Assembly: GCA_902554655.1 (NCBI GenBank)
Contig: CACDPE010000012.1
Location: forward strand, 1 to 34,482
Length of the DNA stretch: 34,482 nt
Direction of reading: 5' to 3'
Source: an uncultured Bacteroidota bacterium
GTDB lineage: Bacteria; Bacteroidota; Bacteroidia; Flavobacteriales; Flavobacteriaceae
The notes beneath the pieces were generated by a model. It saw only the letters and a list, made by a program, of their open reading frames with translations, was not told the origin of the DNA and ran no database searches. Each line of letters opens with the position of its first letter. The stretch's first letter is position 1. Shown here one piece after another: positions 4,431 through 12,069 of this stretch. A program made the translations under genes and the position numbers.

Positions 4431-5714
4431 TTATTTAAAATTTTTTTTCATTTTTAACTCAATTTGATCTAAACACAAATTGTGTATTCCCCCAATTAAA
4501 GTATGCTTTATGGTCTTATTTGGTTTAAAAGAACTGTTTTTTATTTCATTTGAAATTTGGTTATAAGAATCTCTGAAAGTCTTTCCATTTTTAACTAATT
4601 CGTTGAGGTTTTCAACTGAAAAAATAAACTTGTACTTATCATCATCTAAAATATTTTTTCTCACTTTAATTTTATTAATAGAATAGTTAAAAACTTGTAT
4701 GCATTCAATTGTATCTAATATTGCATCAATGATCTTCCCTTTAAAAATTTGATAATCTCTGTGGTATCCACTTGTTAAGTTATTTGACATCAAAATCAAT
4801 TCATTTGGCAAAGCTTTAATCGAATTACATTTTGCTCTAATTAGTTCAAAAACATCTGGATTTTTTTTATGAGGCATGATGCTTGAGCCAGTTGTCATTT
4901 CATTAGGAAATGATATAAAATTTAATTCTTGCGTCATATAAAAACAAATATCAGAACAAAATGTTGAAAGAGTAGTAGCAATTGAACTTAAAGCGATACT
5001 TAAACTTTTTTCAATTTTTCCTCTGTTCATTTGAGAGGCAAGCACATTGTATTTCAATTCTTTAAAACCTAATTTTTTAGTAGTAAATTCTCTATCAATT
5101 TCAAAAGAGGAGCCGTAACCAGCAGCACTTCCCAAAGGATTTTGGTCATTAATTTTATAGGCAGTATTCAAAAATAATATATCATCAATCAAACTTTCTG
5201 CATATGAAGAAAACCATAAACCAAAAGATGATGGCATCGCTGTTTGTAAATGCGTATATCCAGGAAGTAGATAATTTTTATTTTTTTTTGATAGTTTAAT
5301 TAATGATTTGAAAAGTTTATTAATTTCCGATTTAATATTTAAAATTTCATCCTTTAATAATAACTGAATAGATACTAAAACTTGATCATTTCTTGATCTA
5401 CCAGTATGAATTTTTTTCCCTAAATCACCTAAATTTTCAGTTAAATAGCTTTCTATTTTAGAGTGAATGTCTTCAAATTTTTTATCAATTATAAATTTAT
5501 CCTCATGAATTAGTTTGTTTATTTTATTTAGCTCATTTACAAGTAAATTCTTCTCTGCAGAACTAATCAAATTTATTTTTTTTAGCATTTTCGCATGTGC
5601 TATGCTTGCAATTACATCATACTTTGCAAGGAACATATCATAAAATCTATCTTTCCCAACAGTAAATTTTTCTATTATTTTATCTAATTCGTCGTTTTTA
5701 CTCCAAAGCTTCAT
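4431..5714 (-). CDS. argH: Argininosuccinate lyase
   Basis: This enzyme splits argininosuccinate into arginine and fumarate, the last step of arginine synthesis. The protein is a member of the fumarase/aspartase superfamily. TGRSRNDQV lies near residues 104-112, TH (154-155) sits in the catalytic region, and the superfamily signature GSSIMPHKKNPD lies at 276-287. At 427 residues it is a little shorter than typical 460-residue homologues but shows no obvious gap in the core. Its ATG overlaps the argE stop by 4 nt, which points to translational coupling. The sulfatase follows after 4 nt. Confidence 0.94.
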   Translation of the reverse strand: MKLWSKNDELDKIIEKFTVGKDRFYDMFLAKYDVIASIAHAKMLKKINLISSAEKNLLVNELNKINKLIHEDKFIIDKKFEDIHSKIESYLTENLGDLGKKIHTGRSRNDQVLVSIQLLLKDEILNIKSEINKLFKSLIKLSKKNKNYLLPGYTHLQTAMPSSFGLWFSSYAESLIDDILFLNTAYKINDQNPLGSAAGYGSSFEIDREFTTKKLGFKELKYNVLASQMNRGKIEKSLSIALSSIATTLSTFCSDICFYMTQELNFISFPNEMTTGSSIMPHKKNPDVFELIRAKCNSIKALPNELILMSNNLTSGYHRDYQIFKGKIIDAILDTIECIQVFNYSINKIKVRKNILDDDKYKFIFSVENLNELVKNGKTFRDSYNQISNEIKNSSFKPNKTIKHTLIGGIHNLCLDQIELKMKKNFK

Positions 5715-6778
5715 AATGAGTATTCTTCTAAAAGTTTAATGTATTTTTTTATACCATTGTTTATTTCATCTATAAAAATAAATTCATCTGCAGTATGAGA
5801 TCTTAAAGAATCACCAGGACCTAATTTTATTGAGTCACAATTTATTTTAGCTTGATCCGAAAGAGTTGGTGACCCATATGTTTTAAATTTGAGTTTTTTG
5901 GAACAATGGATAATTCTATGATCATTTGAAATTGAAGATGAGTTTAGCTCTAGATTTCTAGGAATAATTTGACAATCTAATACTTTTTTTAATTCATTAA
6001 ATATTTCCTTATTGGAGTATTTATCGTTTACTCTAACATCTAATACGAGATTAACATCGCTGGGAACAACATTATGCTGAATTCCAGCATTAATCTGAGT
6101 TACTGTTAACTTTACATTGCCTAACAGATCTGATTTTTTTTCAAATTTTATGTTAGAAATTATATCAATTACTTTCGCTGCCTTGTAAATTGGGTTGTTT
6201 TTATTTGGGTGTGCAGCATGACTTGAGGTTCCTTTTATGATTAAATCAAATACTATTAGTCCTTTTTCAGCTATGGCGATATCCATTAATGTTGGCTCAC
6301 CAACAATAGCAAGATCAATTTTAGGTAGAGTAGGTATGACACTTTTTATTCCATTAGGTCCAGATCTTTCTTCCTCTGCTGATGCGAGTAGAATAAAATT
6401 ATAATTCAGGTTTTTTTTCTCATAAAAATAAACAAATGTTGAGATTAAACAAACCAGTGCCCCACCAGCATCATTACTTCCTAAGCCATACAATTTTCCT
6501 TCAGAAACTATTGGATTGTATGGGTCTAGTGTATATGCAGAATTTGGCTCAACAGTATCATGATGTGAATTTAGAAGTATAGTTTTTTTGTTTTTATCAA
6601 AAAATTTATTGTATGAAATTATATTATTTGCTTTTCTCTCGCATTTGATTTTTCTACTGCTTAGAAAATTTTCGATTTCATCAGCAGTTTTATCCTCTTC
6701 AAAAGAAAATGATTTAATACTTATTAATTTTTTAAGCAAATCAATTGCATCACTTTGTAATTTATTTATATCAAACAT
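5711..6778 (-). CDS. argE: N-acyl-ornithine/citrulline deacylase, M20 family (ArgE-like)
   Basis: This zinc-dependent M20 amidohydrolase removes the acyl group from the pathway intermediate. In an operon with a transcarbamylase that uses N-acylated ornithine, the likely substrate is N-acyl-citrulline rather than N-acyl-ornithine. Family metal ligands are visible: H72 and D74 in SHHDT, D103 in SNDAGG, the acid pair E135/E136 in AEEERSG, and a C-terminal histidine in SHTADEF. Its 355 residues match bacteroidetal homologues. The ATG lies inside the last codons of argB (13-nt overlap), so the two are probably coupled. Whether the group removed is acetyl or succinyl is not shown by this sequence; see the note on the carbamoyltransferase. 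Confidence 0.88.
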   Translation of the reverse strand: MFDINKLQSDAIDLLKKLISIKSFSFEEDKTADEIENFLSSRKIKCERKANNIISYNKFFDKNKKTILLNSHHDTVEPNSAYTLDPYNPIVSEGKLYGLGSNDAGGALVCLISTFVYFYEKKNLNYNFILLASAEEERSGPNGIKSVIPTLPKIDLAIVGEPTLMDIAIAEKGLIVFDLIIKGTSSHAAHPNKNNPIYKAAKVIDIISNIKFEKKSDLLGNVKLTVTQINAGIQHNVVPSDVNLVLDVRVNDKYSNKEIFNELKKVLDCQIIPRNLELNSSSISNDHRIIHCSKKLKFKTYGSPTLSDQAKINCDSIKLGPGDSLRSHTADEFIFIDEINNGIKKYIKLLEEYSL

Positions 6779-7533
6779 ATTTCAGTGTTATTATTTGATT
6801 TTTCAAATATATCAATATCTCCTATGAATACCTTTTTTACTCCATTTCTAATTGAGTGAAATGAATTTTCAAGTTTTGGAATCATCCCATCCTTGATTTG
6901 ATTTGTTTTTAAATATTTTATGTAGTCATTTTCGTTTAATCTATTACAAACTTTGTTGTCAATAATCACTCCTTTTTTATCAAAACAATAATATAAGTAT
7001 ACATCAAAGTATTTAGTCATTTCAATTGATATTTTTGTAGCAATTGTATCAGCATTGGTATTTAATAAATAACCTTTATTGTCATATGTAATAGGACAAA
7101 AAACTGGGTAGGTTTTGCTTTTAATCAATTTTTTTATGAATTCACTGTCTATCCTTTTAATATCACCTACATACCCATAGTCAATATTTTCAACTTTTCT
7201 TTTATCACTTATTATTACTTTTGAATCAGCCCCTGATAATCCTATAAAATTATTATTTGAATTATTTAATTTTGAAACCAGATTTTTATTAATTATTCCT
7301 GCATACAACATTACTAGAACATCAAGAGATTTTTTATCAGTTATTCTTCTTCCATTAAACATTTTGATTGGTAAATTATGTTTTGAAAAATATTGATTAG
7401 CAATATTTCCACCACCATGAATTAAAATAATATTTTCATTAATATTTTTTATTTTATTGATATATTTTTGAAGTATTTTATTATCAGAAATAATTTTTCC
7501 ACCTATTTTAATGATTTTCAACTCAGATTTCAT
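6766..7533 (-). CDS. argB: N-acylglutamate kinase
   Basis: This enzyme phosphorylates N-acetyl- or N-succinylglutamate at the gamma carboxyl, the second step of arginine synthesis. It is an amino-acid-kinase fold protein of 255 residues. The N-terminal KIGGK phosphate-binding lysine region, the glycine-rich LIHGGGN loop near 40, and a C-terminal NADTIATKIS segment are all present. I start it at the ATG at 7533; a TTG lies one codon upstream and would give a 256-residue form. The start overlaps the end of argF' by 11 nt and the stop overlaps argE. Confidence 0.92.
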   Translation of the reverse strand: MKSELKIIKIGGKIISDNKILQKYINKIKNINENIILIHGGGNIANQYFSKHNLPIKMFNGRRITDKKSLDVLVMLYAGIINKNLVSKLNNSNNNFIGLSGADSKVIISDKRKVENIDYGYVGDIKRIDSEFIKKLIKSKTYPVFCPITYDNKGYLLNTNADTIATKISIEMTKYFDVYLYYCFDKKGVIIDNKVCNRLNENDYIKYLKTNQIKDGMIPKLENSFHSIRNGVKKVFIGDIDIFEKSNNNTEICLI

Positions 7534-8470
7534 CAATAATTTTTTTTAGTACTATTTGAGCGCTAAATATTCTATTCTCGGCTTGATTTAAAATTAAAGA
7601 ATTACTACTATCTAAAATTTCGTCAGCAACAACTACGTTTCTTCGAACTGGAAGACAATGCATAAATTTAGCATGGTTTGTTAGTTCCATTTTTTCTTTG
7701 TTTATTATCCAATTGCTTTCAGTTTCCATAACCTTTCCATAATTATCATAACAACACCAGTTTTTCGCATAAATTAAATCAGCATTTGTAAATGCTTTTT
7801 CTTGGTCATGAATTATTTTTATGTTTTTTGTTACAGATTGACTCAAATTATAACCTTTTGGATTAGTTACTGTAATATCATAGTTTAATCTTAATGCCAT
7901 TTTAACAAATGAGTTAGCTACAGCATGTGGAAGTGGCTTAACATGTGGAGCCCATGACAATACAATTTTTGGTTTTTTTAATAAAATATTTTCTTTAATT
8001 GTAATTGCGTCAGCTAATGCTTGGAGCGGATGACTACATGAGCTTTCTAAATTAATTACTGGAATTTTTGAATATTTTCTAAAAGATTCAACAATTAATT
8101 CTTTCTCATCATACTTTCTGTTTTTGAGTTCTGGAAAACATCTTATTCCAACAATATCACAATATTGACTTATCACACCTGCAGCATCTTTAACATGTTC
8201 CGATTTGTTTAAATTCATAATTGAACCTTCTTCGAACTCTAATTTCCAACCATCATTATTAAGATTGATTTGAATAACATTAATACCTAAGTTTTTAGCA
8301 GCTTTATATGTACTCATCCTAGTTCTTAAACTTGGATTGAAAAAAATTAGTCCGAGAGTGATGTCTATATTTGTTTTATTAAATTTTAATTTGTTTTTTT
8401 TCAAAATCAATGCATCATCAACTAGTTTTTGATAATTTTTAATGTCATTAATATTTATAAAATTTTTCAT
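7523..8470 (-). CDS. argF': N-acylornithine carbamoyltransferase, probably N-succinylornithine type
   Basis: This enzyme transfers a carbamoyl group to N-acylated ornithine. The carbamoyl-phosphate loop FFNPSLRTR is at residues 43-51, HPLQ is near 147, and the C-terminal HCLPVRRN is present. The sequence aligns without gaps over its first 100 residues with the Bacteroides N-succinylornithine transcarbamylase as I remember it, including W75. The residue known to set acyl specificity (Glu92 in the Xanthomonas acetyl enzyme, Pro90 in the Bacteroides succinyl enzyme) is Ser90 here. Published substitution of that Glu by Ser, Pro or Val shifted the acetyl enzyme to succinylornithine, so the succinyl substrate is favoured. 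Length is 315 residues. It overlaps proC by 4 nt with no aminotransferase gene between them. Confidence 0.9.
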   Translation of the reverse strand: MKNFININDIKNYQKLVDDALILKKNKLKFNKTNIDITLGLIFFNPSLRTRMSTYKAAKNLGINVIQINLNNDGWKLEFEEGSIMNLNKSEHVKDAAGVISQYCDIVGIRCFPELKNRKYDEKELIVESFRKYSKIPVINLESSCSHPLQALADAITIKENILLKKPKIVLSWAPHVKPLPHAVANSFVKMALRLNYDITVTNPKGYNLSQSVTKNIKIIHDQEKAFTNADLIYAKNWCCYDNYGKVMETESNWIINKEKMELTNHAKFMHCLPVRRNVVVADEILDSSNSLILNQAENRIFSAQIVLKKIIDEI

Positions 8471-9255
8471 TTTATTTTATTAATTTTTTCATGAGATGAT
8501 ATTAAACCATGAATAATCGCAGAGCTTAATCCTTTATTTTCCATTTCTATTATCCCTTTTATTGTACATCCACTTGGGGTTGTAACCTTGTCAATCTCTT
8601 CCTCAGGATGAGATTTATTAGTTTTAAGGAGATTTATTGCTCCTTCTGCAGTTCTAAAGGATATTTCTAATGAGTCTTTTGCTTCAAAACCTAGTTCTAC
8701 ACCGCCCTGTGCCATAGCTCTTATAATTCTCATCCAAAATGCTATACCACTTGCGCACATTACAGTTGCAGATTGCATTTTTGATTCATTAATTATAATT
8801 GTTTTACCAATACTATCAAAGATTGAAACGCATAGATCAAGATAATCTTTCCCAGTTTCATTTGAGCAAATACACGTTAATGATTTTCTAACTGAAACAG
8901 CTGTGTTAGGCATTGATCTTATAATTTTTTTATCATTTCCTAATGCTCTTTCAATTGAAGAAATTTTTAATCCTGTAATTGTTGATATAATAATATGATT
9001 TTCACTTATATAATCTTTTATCTCATCAAATATGTTTAATGCAATATTCGGCTGCACTGAAATTATTATAATATCAGAATTTTCAACTGCTTGTACATTA
9101 TTACTAGATACTACTACGTTTTCTATTTCGTTATATTCCTTAATAGATGATGTTTTATTTTTAGTTAGATATAAGGTTGTTATTTTATCACTAATCAATA
9201 AACCTTGAGCAATACTTAATCCTAGATTACCAGCTCCAATAATTCCTATTTTCAT
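8467..9255 (-). CDS. proC: Pyrroline-5-carboxylate reductase
   Basis: This enzyme reduces 1-pyrroline-5-carboxylate to proline with NAD(P)H. The dinucleotide-binding motif GIIGAGNLG is at the N terminus, and the C-terminal signature includes TTPSGCTIKGIIEMENKG. Length is 262 residues, normal for ProC. Its position inside the arginine operon is usual in Bacteroidetes and links proline with ornithine/glutamate semialdehyde metabolism. It begins 1 nt after the argC stop and its TGA overlaps the argF' ATG. Confidence 0.93.
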   Translation of the reverse strand: MKIGIIGAGNLGLSIAQGLLISDKITTLYLTKNKTSSIKEYNEIENVVVSSNNVQAVENSDIIIISVQPNIALNIFDEIKDYISENHIIISTITGLKISSIERALGNDKKIIRSMPNTAVSVRKSLTCICSNETGKDYLDLCVSIFDSIGKTIIINESKMQSATVMCASGIAFWMRIIRAMAQGGVELGFEAKDSLEISFRTAEGAINLLKTNKSHPEEEIDKVTTPSGCTIKGIIEMENKGLSSAIIHGLISSHEKINKIK

Positions 9256-9256
9256 T

Positions 9257-10249
9257 TTAATAAATAATTGATTTTAAATTAATTCCTACTAAATCTTCTA
9301 TGCCAAACATAATGTTCATGTTTTGAATTGCTTGTCCAGATGCTCCTTTAATTAAATTATCAATGACTGAAGTTACAAGTATTTTGTCATTGATTTTTTT
9401 CAAATTAATTAAGCATTTATTTGAATTAACAACATTCTTAAGATCAATCTCATTTTTTGATATTTTAACAAATGAAGCTTTTAAATAAAACTTTTTATAG
9501 CTTTCTATTATCTCTTCAATTGTTTTAGATGATTTAAAATAACTTGTACAATAAATTCCTCTTGAAAATGGCCCTCTGTATGTTATAAGATTTAAATTAT
9601 GTTTTTTTTCATTAACACCTTTTAACGTATTATTAATTTCTTCTAGATGCTGATGTTCAAAAGGTTTATACCAAGTAATATTATTGTTTCTCCAACTAAA
9701 GTGTGTGCTTTCTTTTGGAATGATTCCAGCACCAGTACTTCCTGTAATTGCATTTATGTGAATATCATCTTCAGGAAAATTAAATTTTACACTAGGAATT
9801 AATCCTAATAAAATTGCTGTTGCAAAGCAACCTGGATTTGCAACATTTTTACTTTTGCTTATAATTTTTTTATTAATTTCAGGAAGTCCATAAATAAATT
9901 TTCTATTTGATTTTTCATGAAAATTATTATTTCTAAAATCCTGACTTAAGTCAATTATTTTTGTTGTGCTTTTTATTTGATTGTTATTAATAAATTCAAT
10001 GGACTTGTTATGTCCAGAACATAAAAAAATTACATCAACATCATTATTAAATTTATCAATAAAACTTAAATCGGTTTCATCAATCAAATCATTATATAAG
10101 TCAGTAATTTTCTTCTGGTTATTAGTTTTGCTTAATGCAAATGAAATATTAACGTTAGGATGATTTAAAAGAAGTCTAATCAACTCACTTCCTGTGTAAC
10201 CTGATGCGCCAACAATCCCGACTCTAATTTTTTTTGTTTTCATTGACAT
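9257..10249 (-). CDS. argC: N-acyl-gamma-glutamyl-phosphate reductase
   Basis: This enzyme reduces N-acylglutamyl-phosphate to the semialdehyde with NADPH, the third step of arginine synthesis. The cofactor motif VGIVGASGYTG is at residues 10-20, and catalytic Cys141 lies in the family motif NPGCFATA. Length is 330 residues. The start may be the ATG at 10249 or the second ATG two codons later (MSMKTKK). Either way it lies within the last codons of argG, so coupling is likely. Confidence 0.93.
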   Translation of the reverse strand: MSMKTKKIRVGIVGASGYTGSELIRLLLNHPNVNISFALSKTNNQKKITDLYNDLIDETDLSFIDKFNNDVDVIFLCSGHNKSIEFINNNQIKSTTKIIDLSQDFRNNNFHEKSNRKFIYGLPEINKKIISKSKNVANPGCFATAILLGLIPSVKFNFPEDDIHINAITGSTGAGIIPKESTHFSWRNNNITWYKPFEHQHLEEINNTLKGVNEKKHNLNLITYRGPFSRGIYCTSYFKSSKTIEEIIESYKKFYLKASFVKISKNEIDLKNVVNSNKCLINLKKINDKILVTSVIDNLIKGASGQAIQNMNIMFGIEDLVGINLKSIIY

Positions 10250-11414
10250 TTTGATAAATTTTATTTTGATTTGAAAGTATTTTTATAAATCCTTTAGCAT
10301 CTTCTGCATTCCAAAGTTTATTTTTTTCCCCATATAAACCAAATTTCGTATTCATTAGATCATTTTCAGAAACTATTCCTTCTAATTCAAATCTGTATGG
10401 GTGTAAAGTAACAATTACACTTCCACTTACCTTTGATTGACTTGAACTTAAAAATGATTCAACATCTCTCATTACTGGATCTAAATATTGCCCTTCATGC
10501 AGCAGCATTCCATAAAAATCAGAAATTTGATCCTTTTGGAATAATTGCCATTTTGTAAGCGTATGTTTTTCTAAAAGATGGTGTGCTTTAATTATCAGCA
10601 TAGGTCCACCTGCTTGAAAACCAACTCTCCCTTTAATTCCAATAATTGTATCACCTACATGAATATCTCGTCCTACACAATAAGAATCACATATTTTGGA
10701 AACATATTCAATTGCTTCGATTTTATCCATTTTTTTATCATTAACACCGTGTATTTCTCCCTTTTTAAAATTTATTGTAAGTTTTTTTGGACTAGTTTTT
10801 TCTAATGAACTTGGATATGCGTTTTCTGGAAGTTTTGTGTTTGACGTTAATGTTTCATATCCGCCAACACTAGTTCCCCACAAACCTTTATTTACGGAGT
10901 ATTTTGCTTTATTCCACTTTAAATCAATATTATTTTGTTTGAGATATTCTAACTCATCTTCTCTTGAAAGATTGTTATCTCTGATTGGTGTTAATATTTT
11001 TATTTCGGGTGCTAATATTTGGAAAATCATATCAAATCTAATTTGATCATTTCCAGCTCCAGTACTTCCATGAGCTATGAAATTAGATTTATTATCCTTG
11101 GCATATTTAACTATTTCAATTGCTTGAATTATTCTTTCTGAACTAACGGAAAGAGGATAAGTATTATTTCTCAGCACGTTTCCATAAATTAAGTACTTAA
11201 TAATTTTTTCATAAAACAAATTAACTGCTTCAATAGATTTATATTTATTTGCTCCTAGTTCATATGCATTTTCTTCAATTTGTTTTAATTCACTGGCTGT
11301 AAAGCCGCCAGTATTGACACTTACAGCGTCTACAATGTAGCCATCATTGGATAATTTTTTTAAACAATAAGATGTGTCTAGACCACCACTATAAGCAAGA
11401 GTAATTTTTTTCAT
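10224..11414 (-). CDS. argG: Argininosuccinate synthase
   Basis: This enzyme joins citrulline and aspartate using ATP to form argininosuccinate. The PP-loop AYSGGLDTS at residues 7-15 and the second ATP/aspartate motif HGSTGAGNDQIRF near 115-127 are clear. The 396-residue length is normal. It is the second gene of the block. Its ATG overlaps the GNAT gene stop by 4 nt (ATGA). Arginine codons here are mostly AGA, in contrast with the CGN codons of the upstream leader ORF. Confidence 0.95.
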   Translation of the reverse strand: MKKITLAYSGGLDTSYCLKKLSNDGYIVDAVSVNTGGFTASELKQIEENAYELGANKYKSIEAVNLFYEKIIKYLIYGNVLRNNTYPLSVSSERIIQAIEIVKYAKDNKSNFIAHGSTGAGNDQIRFDMIFQILAPEIKILTPIRDNNLSREDELEYLKQNNIDLKWNKAKYSVNKGLWGTSVGGYETLTSNTKLPENAYPSSLEKTSPKKLTINFKKGEIHGVNDKKMDKIEAIEYVSKICDSYCVGRDIHVGDTIIGIKGRVGFQAGGPMLIIKAHHLLEKHTLTKWQLFQKDQISDFYGMLLHEGQYLDPVMRDVESFLSSSQSKVSGSVIVTLHPYRFELEGIVSENDLMNTKFGLYGEKNKLWNAEDAKGFIKILSNQNKIYQNVNENKKN

Positions 11415-11941
11415 TTAATTTTTTTTGGGTTATATAACATTCCTGTGCATAGGCACATTTTTCTTTTTGTTCGTTGAAGAATATCATAATTCTTACATGT
11501 CTGACAACCTTTCCAGAATTCTTTATCATCTGTCAACTCAGAAAAAGTTACAGGTTCATATCCTAAGCTATAATTAATTTTCATTACGGCTAAGCCTGTA
11601 GTAATTCCAAATATTTTTGTATGAGGATATTTTTCTTTTGAATAATTGAAAGTTTTTTTCTTTATTTTTTTTGCGAGACCTATTCCTCTGTATTCAGGCG
11701 AAACAATGAGTCCAGAATGAGCGACATATTTACCATGACCCCATATTTCAATGTAACAAAAACCTGCAAATTTTTTACCATCAATTGCTATAATTGCATT
11801 GTTGTTCCTAATTTTTGTTTCAATATATTCGGGTGTTCTTAAAGCAATGCCAGTTCCTCTTACTTTTGCTGAATCCGAAATGGTATCAGAAATGATTTTA
11901 CAATATTTTATGTGCTTCAAGGAAGCTATTTCAATTTTCAA
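11411..11941 (-). CDS. GNAT acyltransferase, candidate first enzyme of arginine synthesis
   Basis: This is a 176-residue GNAT-fold acyltransferase. Motif A, with the acyl-CoA-binding loop YRGIGLA at residues 84-90, is clear. The C-terminal region carries four cysteines in a C-x2-C (C146, C149) and C-x-C (C163, C165) pattern, which could bind a metal. Because no argA or argJ is seen in the block, this protein is a good candidate for acylating glutamate in the first step; that is inference from position. The start is TTG at 11941: an in-frame TAA lies two codons upstream and no ATG occurs near the N terminus. It is the first enzyme gene after the arginine leader region. Confidence 0.8.
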   Translation of the reverse strand: MKIEIASLKHIKYCKIISDTISDSAKVRGTGIALRTPEYIETKIRNNNAIIAIDGKKFAGFCYIEIWGHGKYVAHSGLIVSPEYRGIGLAKKIKKKTFNYSKEKYPHTKIFGITTGLAVMKINYSLGYEPVTFSELTDDKEFWKGCQTCKNYDILQRTKRKMCLCTGMLYNPKKIK

Positions 11942-11994: not shown

Positions 11995-12031
11995 GTACAT
12001 CAATTAGCGACGTACCTTACTGGGATAACGT
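11995..12031 (-). promoter_or_regulatory. Competing hairpins in the arginine operon leader
   Basis: Read on the minus strand, two stem-loops share one arm. Hairpin A pairs ACGTTATCC (12031-12023) with GGTACGT (12016-12010), with two single-base bulges and loop CAGTAA. Hairpin B pairs GTACGTC (12015-12009) with GATGTAC (12001-11995) around a 7-nt loop, 7 bp with one G-U. They cannot form together. Both overlap Arg codons of the leader ORF. No poly-U terminator follows, so any control would be translational or through another termination route. Confidence 0.4.
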
Positions 12032-12057
12032 TGTGTTGTAAAATTTACTGATATCAC
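12004..12057 (-). CDS. Probable arginine leader peptide (17 residues)
   Basis: This short ORF starts with GTG at 12057 and would encode MISVNFTTQRYPSKVRR, then TAA at 12004. Three of its 17 residues are arginine, two of them adjacent just before the stop, and all use CGT or CGC in a genome that otherwise prefers AGA. It lies 62 bp before the GNAT start. A near-consensus -7 box is 4 nt before its GTG, the same spacing as several other genes in the window. The locally higher G+C of this segment also marks it as special. An attenuation leader that senses charged tRNA-Arg is the natural reading. The peptide is too short for homology evidence, and the GTG start is not proven. Confidence 0.5.
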   Translation of the reverse strand: MISVNFTTQRYPSKVRR

Positions 12058-12061
12058 AATG

Positions 12062-12069
12062 CAAATATC
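12062..12069 (-). promoter_or_regulatory. Candidate -7 promoter box of the arginine operon (GATATTTG)
   Basis: On the minus strand GATATTTG matches TAnnTTTG at all fixed positions except the first. A TTTTG (12090-12086), about 16 nt upstream, could serve as the -33 element, slightly closer than usual. Transcription would begin at or next to the GTG of the leader peptide. Confidence 0.45.

What the first reader, a model, noticed from the sequence alone, without database searches (positions are those of the whole stretch)
12004..12069. Arginine-rich leader peptide in front of the arginine operon
Sequence: a 17-codon ORF on the minus strand ends in Val-Arg-Arg-stop and has a third Arg at position 10, all CGT/CGC in a genome using mostly AGA. 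It lies directly upstream of the GNAT-argGC-proC-argF'BEH block. A near-consensus Bacteroidetes -7 box ends 4 nt before its GTG. Knowledge: amino-acid leader peptides with codons for the end product control biosynthetic operons by attenuation, known for several pathways but not, to my knowledge, established for arg in marine flavobacteria. Inference: ribosome stalling at rare CGN codons senses arginine.
Basis: partly seen in the sequence, partly recalled or inferred. Interest (0 to 1): 0.72.

Follow-up and report, generated by a model that had tools for sequence, protein, structure and literature searches.

The report
Arginine-sensing leader peptide before arginine genes
A tiny gene packed with arginine codons sits at the very start of the arginine-making operon in this marine bacterium and in many of its relatives, and probably lets the ribosome sense arginine shortage and switch the operon on.

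Summary
Observation correct; the idea survives its named refuter. A 17-codon GTG ORF (12057-12004, minus; VISVNFTTQRYPSKVRR*) precedes a GNAT-argGC-proC-argF'BEH block. Its three Arg codons are CGN, against 17 of 320 in 30 window genes. All 8 same-genus GNAT loci have such an ORF. An ORF with at least 3 Arg near its end occurs in 90 of 105 upstream regions of relatives (21 reverse complements) and in 40 of 54 class-level loci outside the family (13). The frame is open, Arg codons change synonymously, and where a perfect -7 box was found it mostly lies 4 or 7 nt before the start: a (near-)leaderless leader. In many Flavobacteriaceae the Arg codons run into a short hairpin (P1), a U-rich linker and a covarying hairpin (P2); no Rfam match. 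32 of 105 loci appear to hold two Arg leaders. ArgR's domain was found in 0 of 60 relatives. Best reading: ribosomes stalling on CGN codons sense arginine and control the operon in cis. The read-out is unshown; leader:P2 antitermination was tested and not supported. F. psychrophilum work already suspects such leaders at amino-acid operons.

The parts
12062..12069 (-). -7 promoter box GATATTTG (TAnnTTTG with one mismatch); by the -12 to -5 geometry transcription would start at the GTG
   Evidence: TATTTG, 4 nt, GTG in 6 of the 8 same-genus loci (L005-L010; not in L011 and L013); perfect box 1-14 nt before an Arg-rich ORF in 34 of 105 loci against 1-3 for six control boxes; geometry from PMC9723704 (passage)
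12004..12057 (-). leader ORF, GTG start, 17 codons, VISVNFTTQRYPSKVRR, TAA
   Evidence: conserved in L006 and L007 without frame-breaking indels and, in diverged form, in most relatives examined
12028..12030 (-). Arg codon 10, CGT
   Evidence: CGT also in L006 and L007
12007..12012 (-). Arg codons 16-17, CGT CGC, just before the stop
   Evidence: CGT CGC in L006, CGC CGC (synonymous) in L007
11995..12015 (-). P1-like 8-bp hairpin: last two Arg codons in the 5' arm, stop codon UAA in the loop
   Evidence: in the minimum free energy fold and centroid; whole-leader z -0.18, so not unusually stable; L006 folds a similar hairpin at the same place with its stop at the loop edge
11411..11941 (-). GNAT acetyltransferase, first operon gene
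   Evidence: Pfam PF00583
10224..11414 (-). argG
   Evidence: Pfam PF00764/PF20979
9257..10249 (-). argC
   Evidence: Pfam PF01118/PF22698
8467..9255 (-). proC
   Evidence: Pfam PF14748/PF03807
7523..8470 (-). ornithine-type carbamoyltransferase (argF')
   Evidence: Pfam PF02729/PF00185; substrate not tested
6766..7536 (-). argB-type amino-acid kinase
   Evidence: Pfam PF00696
5711..6778 (-). argE-type M20 deacylase
   Evidence: Pfam PF01546/PF07687
4431..5714 (-). argH
   Evidence: Pfam PF00206

Best explanation
The ORF is a cis-acting regulatory leader peptide (an 'argL') of the arginine operon. Supported by comparative sequence: (1) a promoter box places the start codon at or within a few nt of the predicted RNA 5' end; (2) the ORF ends in a conserved cluster of Arg codons, almost all CGN; (3) the last Arg codons run into a hairpin (P1) that often has the stop codon in its loop, and in many Flavobacteriaceae a U-rich linker and a covarying hairpin (P2) follow before the GNAT start. 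Inferred: the first ribosome loads directly on the new RNA end. With charged Arg-tRNA it runs to the stop and leaves, P1 forms with its U-rich flank, and transcription of the operon is ended or stalled. With scarce Arg-tRNA it stalls on the CGN run, covers the 5' arm of P1, and transcription goes on. The leader as arginine sensor is the firm part; P1 as the attenuator is my preferred but weaker step (about 0.4); the role of P2 is not explained.
For: Arg-rich ORF enriched: 90 of 105 upstream regions have an ORF with at least 3 Arg in its last 15 codons against 21 of 105 reverse complements; outside the family 40 of 54 class-level loci against 13 of 54. Frame: open for at least 20 codons in 63 of 63 loci that end Arg-Pro-stop, other frames 26 and 19. 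In these, codon -3 is Arg in 59 of 63 (CGT 41, CGC 17, CGA 1), codon -4 in 37 of 63. CGN 179 of 187 leader Arg codons against 204 of 415 in GNAT of the same 63 loci. Promoter box before the Arg-rich ORF in 34 of 105 against 1-3 for control boxes. P2 covariation on 23 loci: 7 of 12 P1/P2 pairs with changes on both sides (1 of 500 shuffles), covariation score reached by 0 of 500. Model R1: hits at E <= 1e-5 only at the arg operon, one each in 9 of 60 genomes, which are the 9 GNAT-bearing family members outside the genus. ArgR domain in 0 of 60 relatives, control genomes positive in 8 of 14 including a Bacteroides. P1 plus U-rich flank scores terminator-like: 37 of 105 loci against 3.0 expected, all 37 at a P1-type hairpin; P1-P2 linker 54% T.
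Against: No expression, TSS or ribosome data for this organism. The own leader RNA folds no better than shuffles (z -0.18) and shows no clear P2; model R1 has no hit in the own genome and in only 1 of the 22 other same-genus genomes. P1 has little covariation support: 1 of 4 pairs with changes on both sides, and the consensus fold of 83 matches drops it. One shuffle measure, further pair types, does not stand out (128 of 500). P2 lacks a U-tract (at least 5 T of 8 in 9 of 77 loci), and a leader:P2 antiterminator pairing is not supported (mean z 0.03, n 77). P1 is short (mostly 4-5 bp) and its U-rich stretch does not always start at the stem. In the 240-nt test 15 of 105 loci had fewer than 3 Arg; L023, L025 and L094 had none. 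The TAnnTTTG box is itself commoner in these regions (65 occurrences) than the control boxes (22-44).
Confidence: 0.82

Rival explanations
1. Arginine-sensing leader, but the switch is Rho-dependent termination, RNA decay or translation of GNAT, with P1/P2 shaping the RNA, as in Salmonella speF orf34, not an intrinsic terminator.
For: No U-tract after P2 in most loci and no supported leader:P2 antiterminator; the P2-to-GNAT stretch is G-poor (A 39, C 17, G 7, T 37%); orf34 acts through Rho, RNA structure and RNase G (PMC6386406, passages).
Against: P1 with its U-rich flank is terminator-like far above chance (37 of 105 against 3.0).
Confidence: 0.4
2. Nascent-peptide arrest: the peptide's C-terminal (R)RP senses free arginine in the exit tunnel and arrests at the stop codon, as the fungal arginine attenuator peptide does (recalled).
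For: 63 of 105 loci end in Arg-Pro-stop.
Against: Pro before stop is not general: own genus ends RR*, RRQ*, LRLRQ* or RPxWVVSI*, others VRA*, RRLVRV*, RRPLGV*, so the stop position moves while Arg codons stay; the Pro codon can be explained by P1 pairing.
Confidence: 0.08
3. A conserved RNA or DNA element (CGYCGCCC... P1/P2) with no translated ORF; the Arg codons are a by-product of the sequence motif.
For: P1 fixes CGC CC(C); P2 is conserved beyond pairing.
Against: Frame openness (63 of 63), synonymous changes at codons -3 and -4, promoter box set just before the ORF, and Arg-rich ORFs where P1/P2 were not found: most of the own genus, the upstream ORF of the tandem loci, other families.
Confidence: 0.06
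4. Chance ORF in this genome.
For: 13 of 2000 shuffles of the own intergenic region give as many Arg.
Against: All 8 same-genus GNAT loci and 90 of 105 loci in all have an Arg-rich ORF there.
Confidence: 0.02

Closest known systems
Ribosome-mediated attenuators of amino-acid operons (trp, his, leu, thr, ilv; PMC1183508, abstract and passages)
   Same: Short leader ORF between promoter and operon with codons for the end product near its end; hairpins after it.
   Different: Arginine; (near-)leaderless leader; short P1 plus a conserved P2 without U-tract; no supported leader:P2 antiterminator; apparent tandem leaders in 32 of 105 loci.
Salmonella speF orf34 (PMC6386406, passages)
   Same: Consecutive Arg codons in a leader ORF sense arginine through ribosome pausing.
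   Different: Controls polyamine synthesis in a proteobacterium; 34-codon ORF with a Shine-Dalgarno site, start site 516 nt before speF, Rho and RNase G; kinship of the peptides not tested.
Staphylococcus aureus rbfL (PMC13009471, passages)
   Same: GUG-started tiny leader with rare Arg codons senses arginine shortage.
   Different: Overlaps the RBS of a biofilm regulator and represses it under shortage; AGA/AGG codons; not a biosynthetic operon.
Leader-peptide candidates in Flavobacterium psychrophilum (PMC9723704, passages)
   Same: Flavobacterial 5' regions with 'strong clues' for leader-peptide attenuation upstream of amino-acid biosynthesis operons.
   Different: The passages seen do not name an arginine operon; the supplement with the list could not be read here, so overlap cannot be excluded.
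Pseudomonas aeruginosa carA leader (PMC4997734, passages)
   Same: A leader peptide before a gene that also feeds arginine synthesis.
   Different: The passages tie the attenuation to pyrimidines; arginine acts at the transcriptional level there.
Bacteroid-trp (RF01692) and GUCCY-hairpin of Weinberg 2010 (PMC2864571, table lines only)
   Same: Bacteroidetes RNA motifs; P2 holds GUCC.
   Different: No Rfam hit in the loci scanned; in P2 GUCC is mostly followed by A or G; the table gives no Rfam number for GUCCY-hairpin and I did not see its structure, so kinship is open.

Membership tests
Ribosome-mediated transcription attenuator (trp/his type) | Leader ORF with clustered codons for the operon's end product | tested here: met
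   (sequence level)
Ribosome-mediated transcription attenuator (trp/his type) | Leader lies between the operon promoter and the first gene, on the same strand | tested here: met
   sequence level only:
Ribosome-mediated transcription attenuator (trp/his type) | Intrinsic terminator (GC-rich hairpin plus U-tract) between leader and first gene | tested here: inconclusive
   P1 plus U-rich flank 37 of 105 against 3.0 expected; P2 without U-tract; own window: no minus-strand site in the scan
Ribosome-mediated transcription attenuator (trp/his type) | Mutually exclusive antiterminator pairing | tested here: not met
   leader:P2 duplex mean z 0.03, n 77; P2-loop with Arg-codon stretch not associated (Fisher p 0.24); other pairings not tested
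Ribosome-mediated transcription attenuator (trp/his type) | Operon expression falls with arginine and depends on leader translation | not testable with these tools
   needs reporter or RNA-seq work
Known Rfam cis-regulatory RNA (T-box, riboswitch, Bacteroid-trp, Flavo-1) | Match to the covariance model | tested here: not met
   no hit in the window or 8 relatives at gathering score, none at E <= 1 in 6 further relatives
ArgR-controlled arg operon | ArgR encoded in the genome | tested here: not met
   PF02863 in 0 of 60 relatives including the own, 68% complete genome; control positive in 8 of 14; only this domain model searched
Arginine attenuator peptide (fungal AAP type arrest) | Arrest at a fixed position at the stop codon by a conserved peptide domain | tested here: inconclusive
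   stop position and C-terminal residues vary between clades; arrest itself not testable

The most novel reading that the evidence does not exclude
Arginine synthesis in Flavobacteriaceae, where no ArgR was found in the genomes searched, is run by a leaderless, arginine-coded leader whose read-out is not a terminator/antiterminator switch but a new conserved two-hairpin element (P1 with the stop codon in its loop, U-rich linker, P2 with the GGUGNGUCC loop) recognised by a factor or the ribosome, with a second Arg leader in series in part of the family.
Probability: 0.3. Interest if true: 0.75.

Novelty: new variant of a known kind. Interest (0 to 1): 0.62.

Why it matters
Arginine is the classic ArgR-controlled pathway (recalled). 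Here a large bacterial family in which no ArgR was found appears to sense arginine with the ribosome, through a leader that starts at or near the RNA end. This would name the arginine regulator of an abundant marine group, give an RNA motif with no match in the Rfam release searched, and offer a clean test of how attenuation works without Shine-Dalgarno sites or a clear terminator.

Tried and rejected
Antiterminator between leader and P2 5' arm: rejected as a general feature; L012, L020, L043 and L030 look good singly but the mean z over 77 is 0.03. Kissing of the P2 loop with the CGYCGCC codons: no association, p 0.24. P2 as intrinsic terminator: U-tract missing in most. P1/P2 as a general amino-acid element: of 27 hits (E <= 0.1) in 60 genomes 11 lie at the arg operon; the other 16 are weak (E 0.004-0.1); I printed all 16 with the nearest long ORF where there was one and saw no amino-acid leader among them, but ran no family search on them. 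Known RNA family: none. tRNA in the window: none. Upstream hairpin P0 inside the leader: moderate support (mean z 0.89, n 77), left out of the core claim. My regex for codons between Arg-Pro and stop (last line) mixed frames and is not used.

Rows and sets: the 105 loci are 25 (own included) and 80 (the best 80 of 592, a capped list); 104 are distinct in the last 200 nt and many are close kin, so counts are not independent. One search was given 99 of the 105 (L103, L105-L109 left out) and gave 83 matches; the model was built from 23 of these loci. One search used 68 of the 77 motif loci, 23 of them. Class-level set: 29 loci plus 40 regions chosen from the more than 100 further hits listed there; 67 of 69 kept, L213 and L214 dropped because the RGTGI anchor was not found; 13 of the 67 are of the own family, so the outside count is 40 of 54 against 13 (all together 50 of 67 against 14). 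GNAT starts there are placed approximately (78 nt before RGTGI). Tandem count 32 of 105 includes one doubtful case (L091) and 0 in reverse complements. In one search my script mis-set the start of L009 by one base; its leader is read. Of the 37 terminator-like loci 27 were placed at P1 by script and 10 by eye.

Literature: ten searches; no listed title or abstract opening names an arginine leader peptide at a Bacteroidetes arg operon. Passages of eight papers were seen; no paper was read whole; subscription journals and supplements were not searchable.

Full report
What is there. The minus strand holds GTG ATA TCA GTA AAT TTT ACA ACA CAA CGT TAT CCC AGT AAG GTA CGT CGC TAA at 12057-12004, in the gap between a divergent chorismate-binding gene (12116 onward, plus strand) and the GNAT gene. 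The genes that follow the GNAT carry Pfam domains for argG, argC, proC, an ornithine-type carbamoyltransferase, argB, argE and argH. Arg codons in 30 window ORFs are CGN in 17 of 320 cases; the leader has 3 of 3. Shuffles of the own gap reach as many Arg near the end of a short ORF in 13 of 2000 cases, so the decision rests on relatives.

Same genus. A GNAT gene was found in 8 of the 23 same-genus genomes, own included; argG in 9 of 23 (these genomes are 55-87% complete). All 8 upstream regions have a short ORF with two or more CGN Arg codons near its end: VISVNFTTQRYPSKVRR, VISINFTIQRKPSNVRRQ, VINKxNLKKRNQRKTRR...LARIFRRFRPYWVVSI...LRINRGVRPLWVVSI...TRSARCFRPLWVVSI, and twice KKSSTYFSFLRLRQ. 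Between own and L007 the 60 nt before the GTG are 95% identical and the ORF only 66%, yet length in codons, Arg10, Arg16 and Arg17 are kept, with CGT to CGC at Arg16. L005-L010 share TATTTG followed after 4 nt by the GTG; L011 and L013 do not.

Family and class. Over 105 upstream regions (25; 80 named ones, such as Zobellia, Maribacter, Gillisia, Polaribacter), an ORF with at least 3 Arg in its last 15 codons is present in 90, against 21 in reverse complements; mean Arg 3.76 against 1.68 and, in shuffles, 1.30. In the 63 loci that end Arg-Pro-stop the frame is open for at least 20 codons in 63 of 63 (26 and 19 in the other frames); codon -3 is Arg in 59 of 63 with CGT 41, CGC 17, CGA 1; codon -4 in 37 of 63. 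Leader Arg codons before the last CGC are CGN in 179 of 187, those of GNAT in the same loci in 204 of 415. Outside the family, 40 of 54 class-level loci have such an ORF against 13 of 54 reverse complements, with endings such as RRPILPRA, SRRRLFIPRV and VPFFPRR, so the trait is wider than the family.

Promoter. A perfect TAnnTTTG box lies 1-14 nt before the start of an Arg-rich ORF in 34 of 105 loci; six permuted boxes give 1-3, though they are also rarer overall (22-44 occurrences against 65). The commonest gaps are 7 nt (15) and 4 nt (12). With the box at -12 to -5 (PMC9723704, passage) a 4-nt gap puts +1 on the start codon. The own leader has this gap, with one mismatch in the box. Leaderless mRNAs are otherwise uncommon: 5.5% in F. 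psychrophilum (same passage).

RNA structure. In many Flavobacteriaceae the last Arg codons run into P1 (CGCCC GUAA GGGUG in many species, stop codon in the loop), a linker with 54% T, and P2, a hairpin with covarying stem and near-invariant GGUGNGUCC. The strict motif GGTG[AT]GTCC is in 66 of 105 loci, a relaxed form in 77. On 23 aligned loci 7 of 12 pairs (6 of 8 in P2, 1 of 4 in P1) have changes on both sides; the covariation score 0.31 is reached by 0 of 500 shuffles and exceeds all slid versions, while the number of further pair types does not stand out (128 of 500) (the structure was drawn from these sequences). On 83 model matches RNAalifold keeps P2 (7 of 8 pairs with compensatory changes) and drops P1, so P1 rests on its sequence and position. 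In 60 genomes the model's hits at E <= 1e-5 are 9, one per genome, all at the arg operon, and these are the 9 family members outside the genus that have the GNAT gene. Two weaker hits (G019, G038) are also arg loci; 16 weak ones lie elsewhere. The own genome has no hit. There the last two Arg codons and the stop form an 8-bp P1-like hairpin (11995-12015) with UAA in the loop, but the leader RNA as a whole is not unusually stable (z -0.18), and I see no clear P2. L007-L010 do show a second hairpin in single folds. No Rfam family matches in the window or 14 relatives.

Tandem leaders. In 32 of 105 loci (one doubtful) a second Arg-rich ORF such as MNTLKNKIRPSSPGLRARSPRRRF lies about 100 nt further upstream, in several cases right after the promoter box; 0 reverse complements show this. 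The model found no second P1/P2 there, which speaks for the codons as the selected feature.

Regulator. The ArgR C-terminal domain was found in 0 of 60 relatives, control positive in 8 of 14 genomes including a Bacteroides. Only this one domain model was searched.

How it probably works. The firm step is a translated, arginine-coded leader in cis; translation itself is inferred from frame and codon conservation. The preferred read-out is that a ribosome stalled on the CGN run masks the 5' arm of P1, while a ribosome that finishes lets P1 form; P1 with its U-rich flank counts as terminator-like in 37 of 105 loci against 3.0 expected. Against it: P1 is short, P2 has no U-tract, and no antiterminator pairing with P2 is supported. 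Rho, RNA decay or translational control remain open; Salmonella orf34 is a known case of that sort.

What is known. Codon-cognate leaders are established for trp, his and others (PMC1183508, abstract and passages). Arg-codon leaders are known for speF in Salmonella (PMC6386406, passages) and rbf in S. aureus (PMC13009471, passages), neither an arginine biosynthesis operon. The F. psychrophilum transcriptome paper reports strong clues for leader-peptide attenuation at amino-acid operons without naming an arginine operon in the passages seen; its supplement could not be read here. None of my ten searches listed a title or abstract opening that names an arginine leader at a Bacteroidetes arg operon, so the case looks like a new variant of a known kind, with the caveat that the supplement may hold it.

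Noticed in passing
upstream of GNAT in L015-L018, L034, L040, L051, L054, L058, L059, L061, L063, L065, L070, L072-L074, L077, L080, L082, L085-L087, L089-L092, L097, L098, L106-L108: A second, promoter-proximal Arg-rich ORF (e.g. MNTLKNKIRPSSPGLRARSPRRRF*) about 100 nt before the main leader in 32 of 105 loci (L091 doubtful): apparent tandem arginine leaders.
   Followed up: partly
L022, L024, L026-L028 and part of L149-L212 (other families and orders): Other Bacteroidia carry different but Arg-ended leaders (RRRPVRV*, PRA*, FIPRV*, VPFFPRR*) before the same GNAT gene; their RNA structures were not analysed.
   Followed up: partly
L099, L103 (Wenyingzhuangia, Ochrovirga): Leader ending RRRRIRE* or RRRIRE* without the P2 motif but with another possible stem after the stop (AGCCTG...CAGGGT).
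   Followed up: no
L094, L104, L105 (a Bacteroidia MAG and two Aquimarina): Leader and/or P1-P2 lie about 190-360 nt before GNAT, with extra sequence in between.
   Followed up: no
same-genus genomes G001-G022: argG found in 9 of 23 same-genus genomes although seven lacking it are above 80% complete: possible arginine auxotrophy in part of the genus.
   Followed up: no
LR756504.1:454070-454588: A 636-kb record labelled uncultured phage encodes a GNAT 61% identical to this one; could be a mislabelled bacterial contig.
   Followed up: no
window 4431-11941: No argD-type aminotransferase domain appears among the Pfam hits of the block between GNAT and argH.
   Followed up: no
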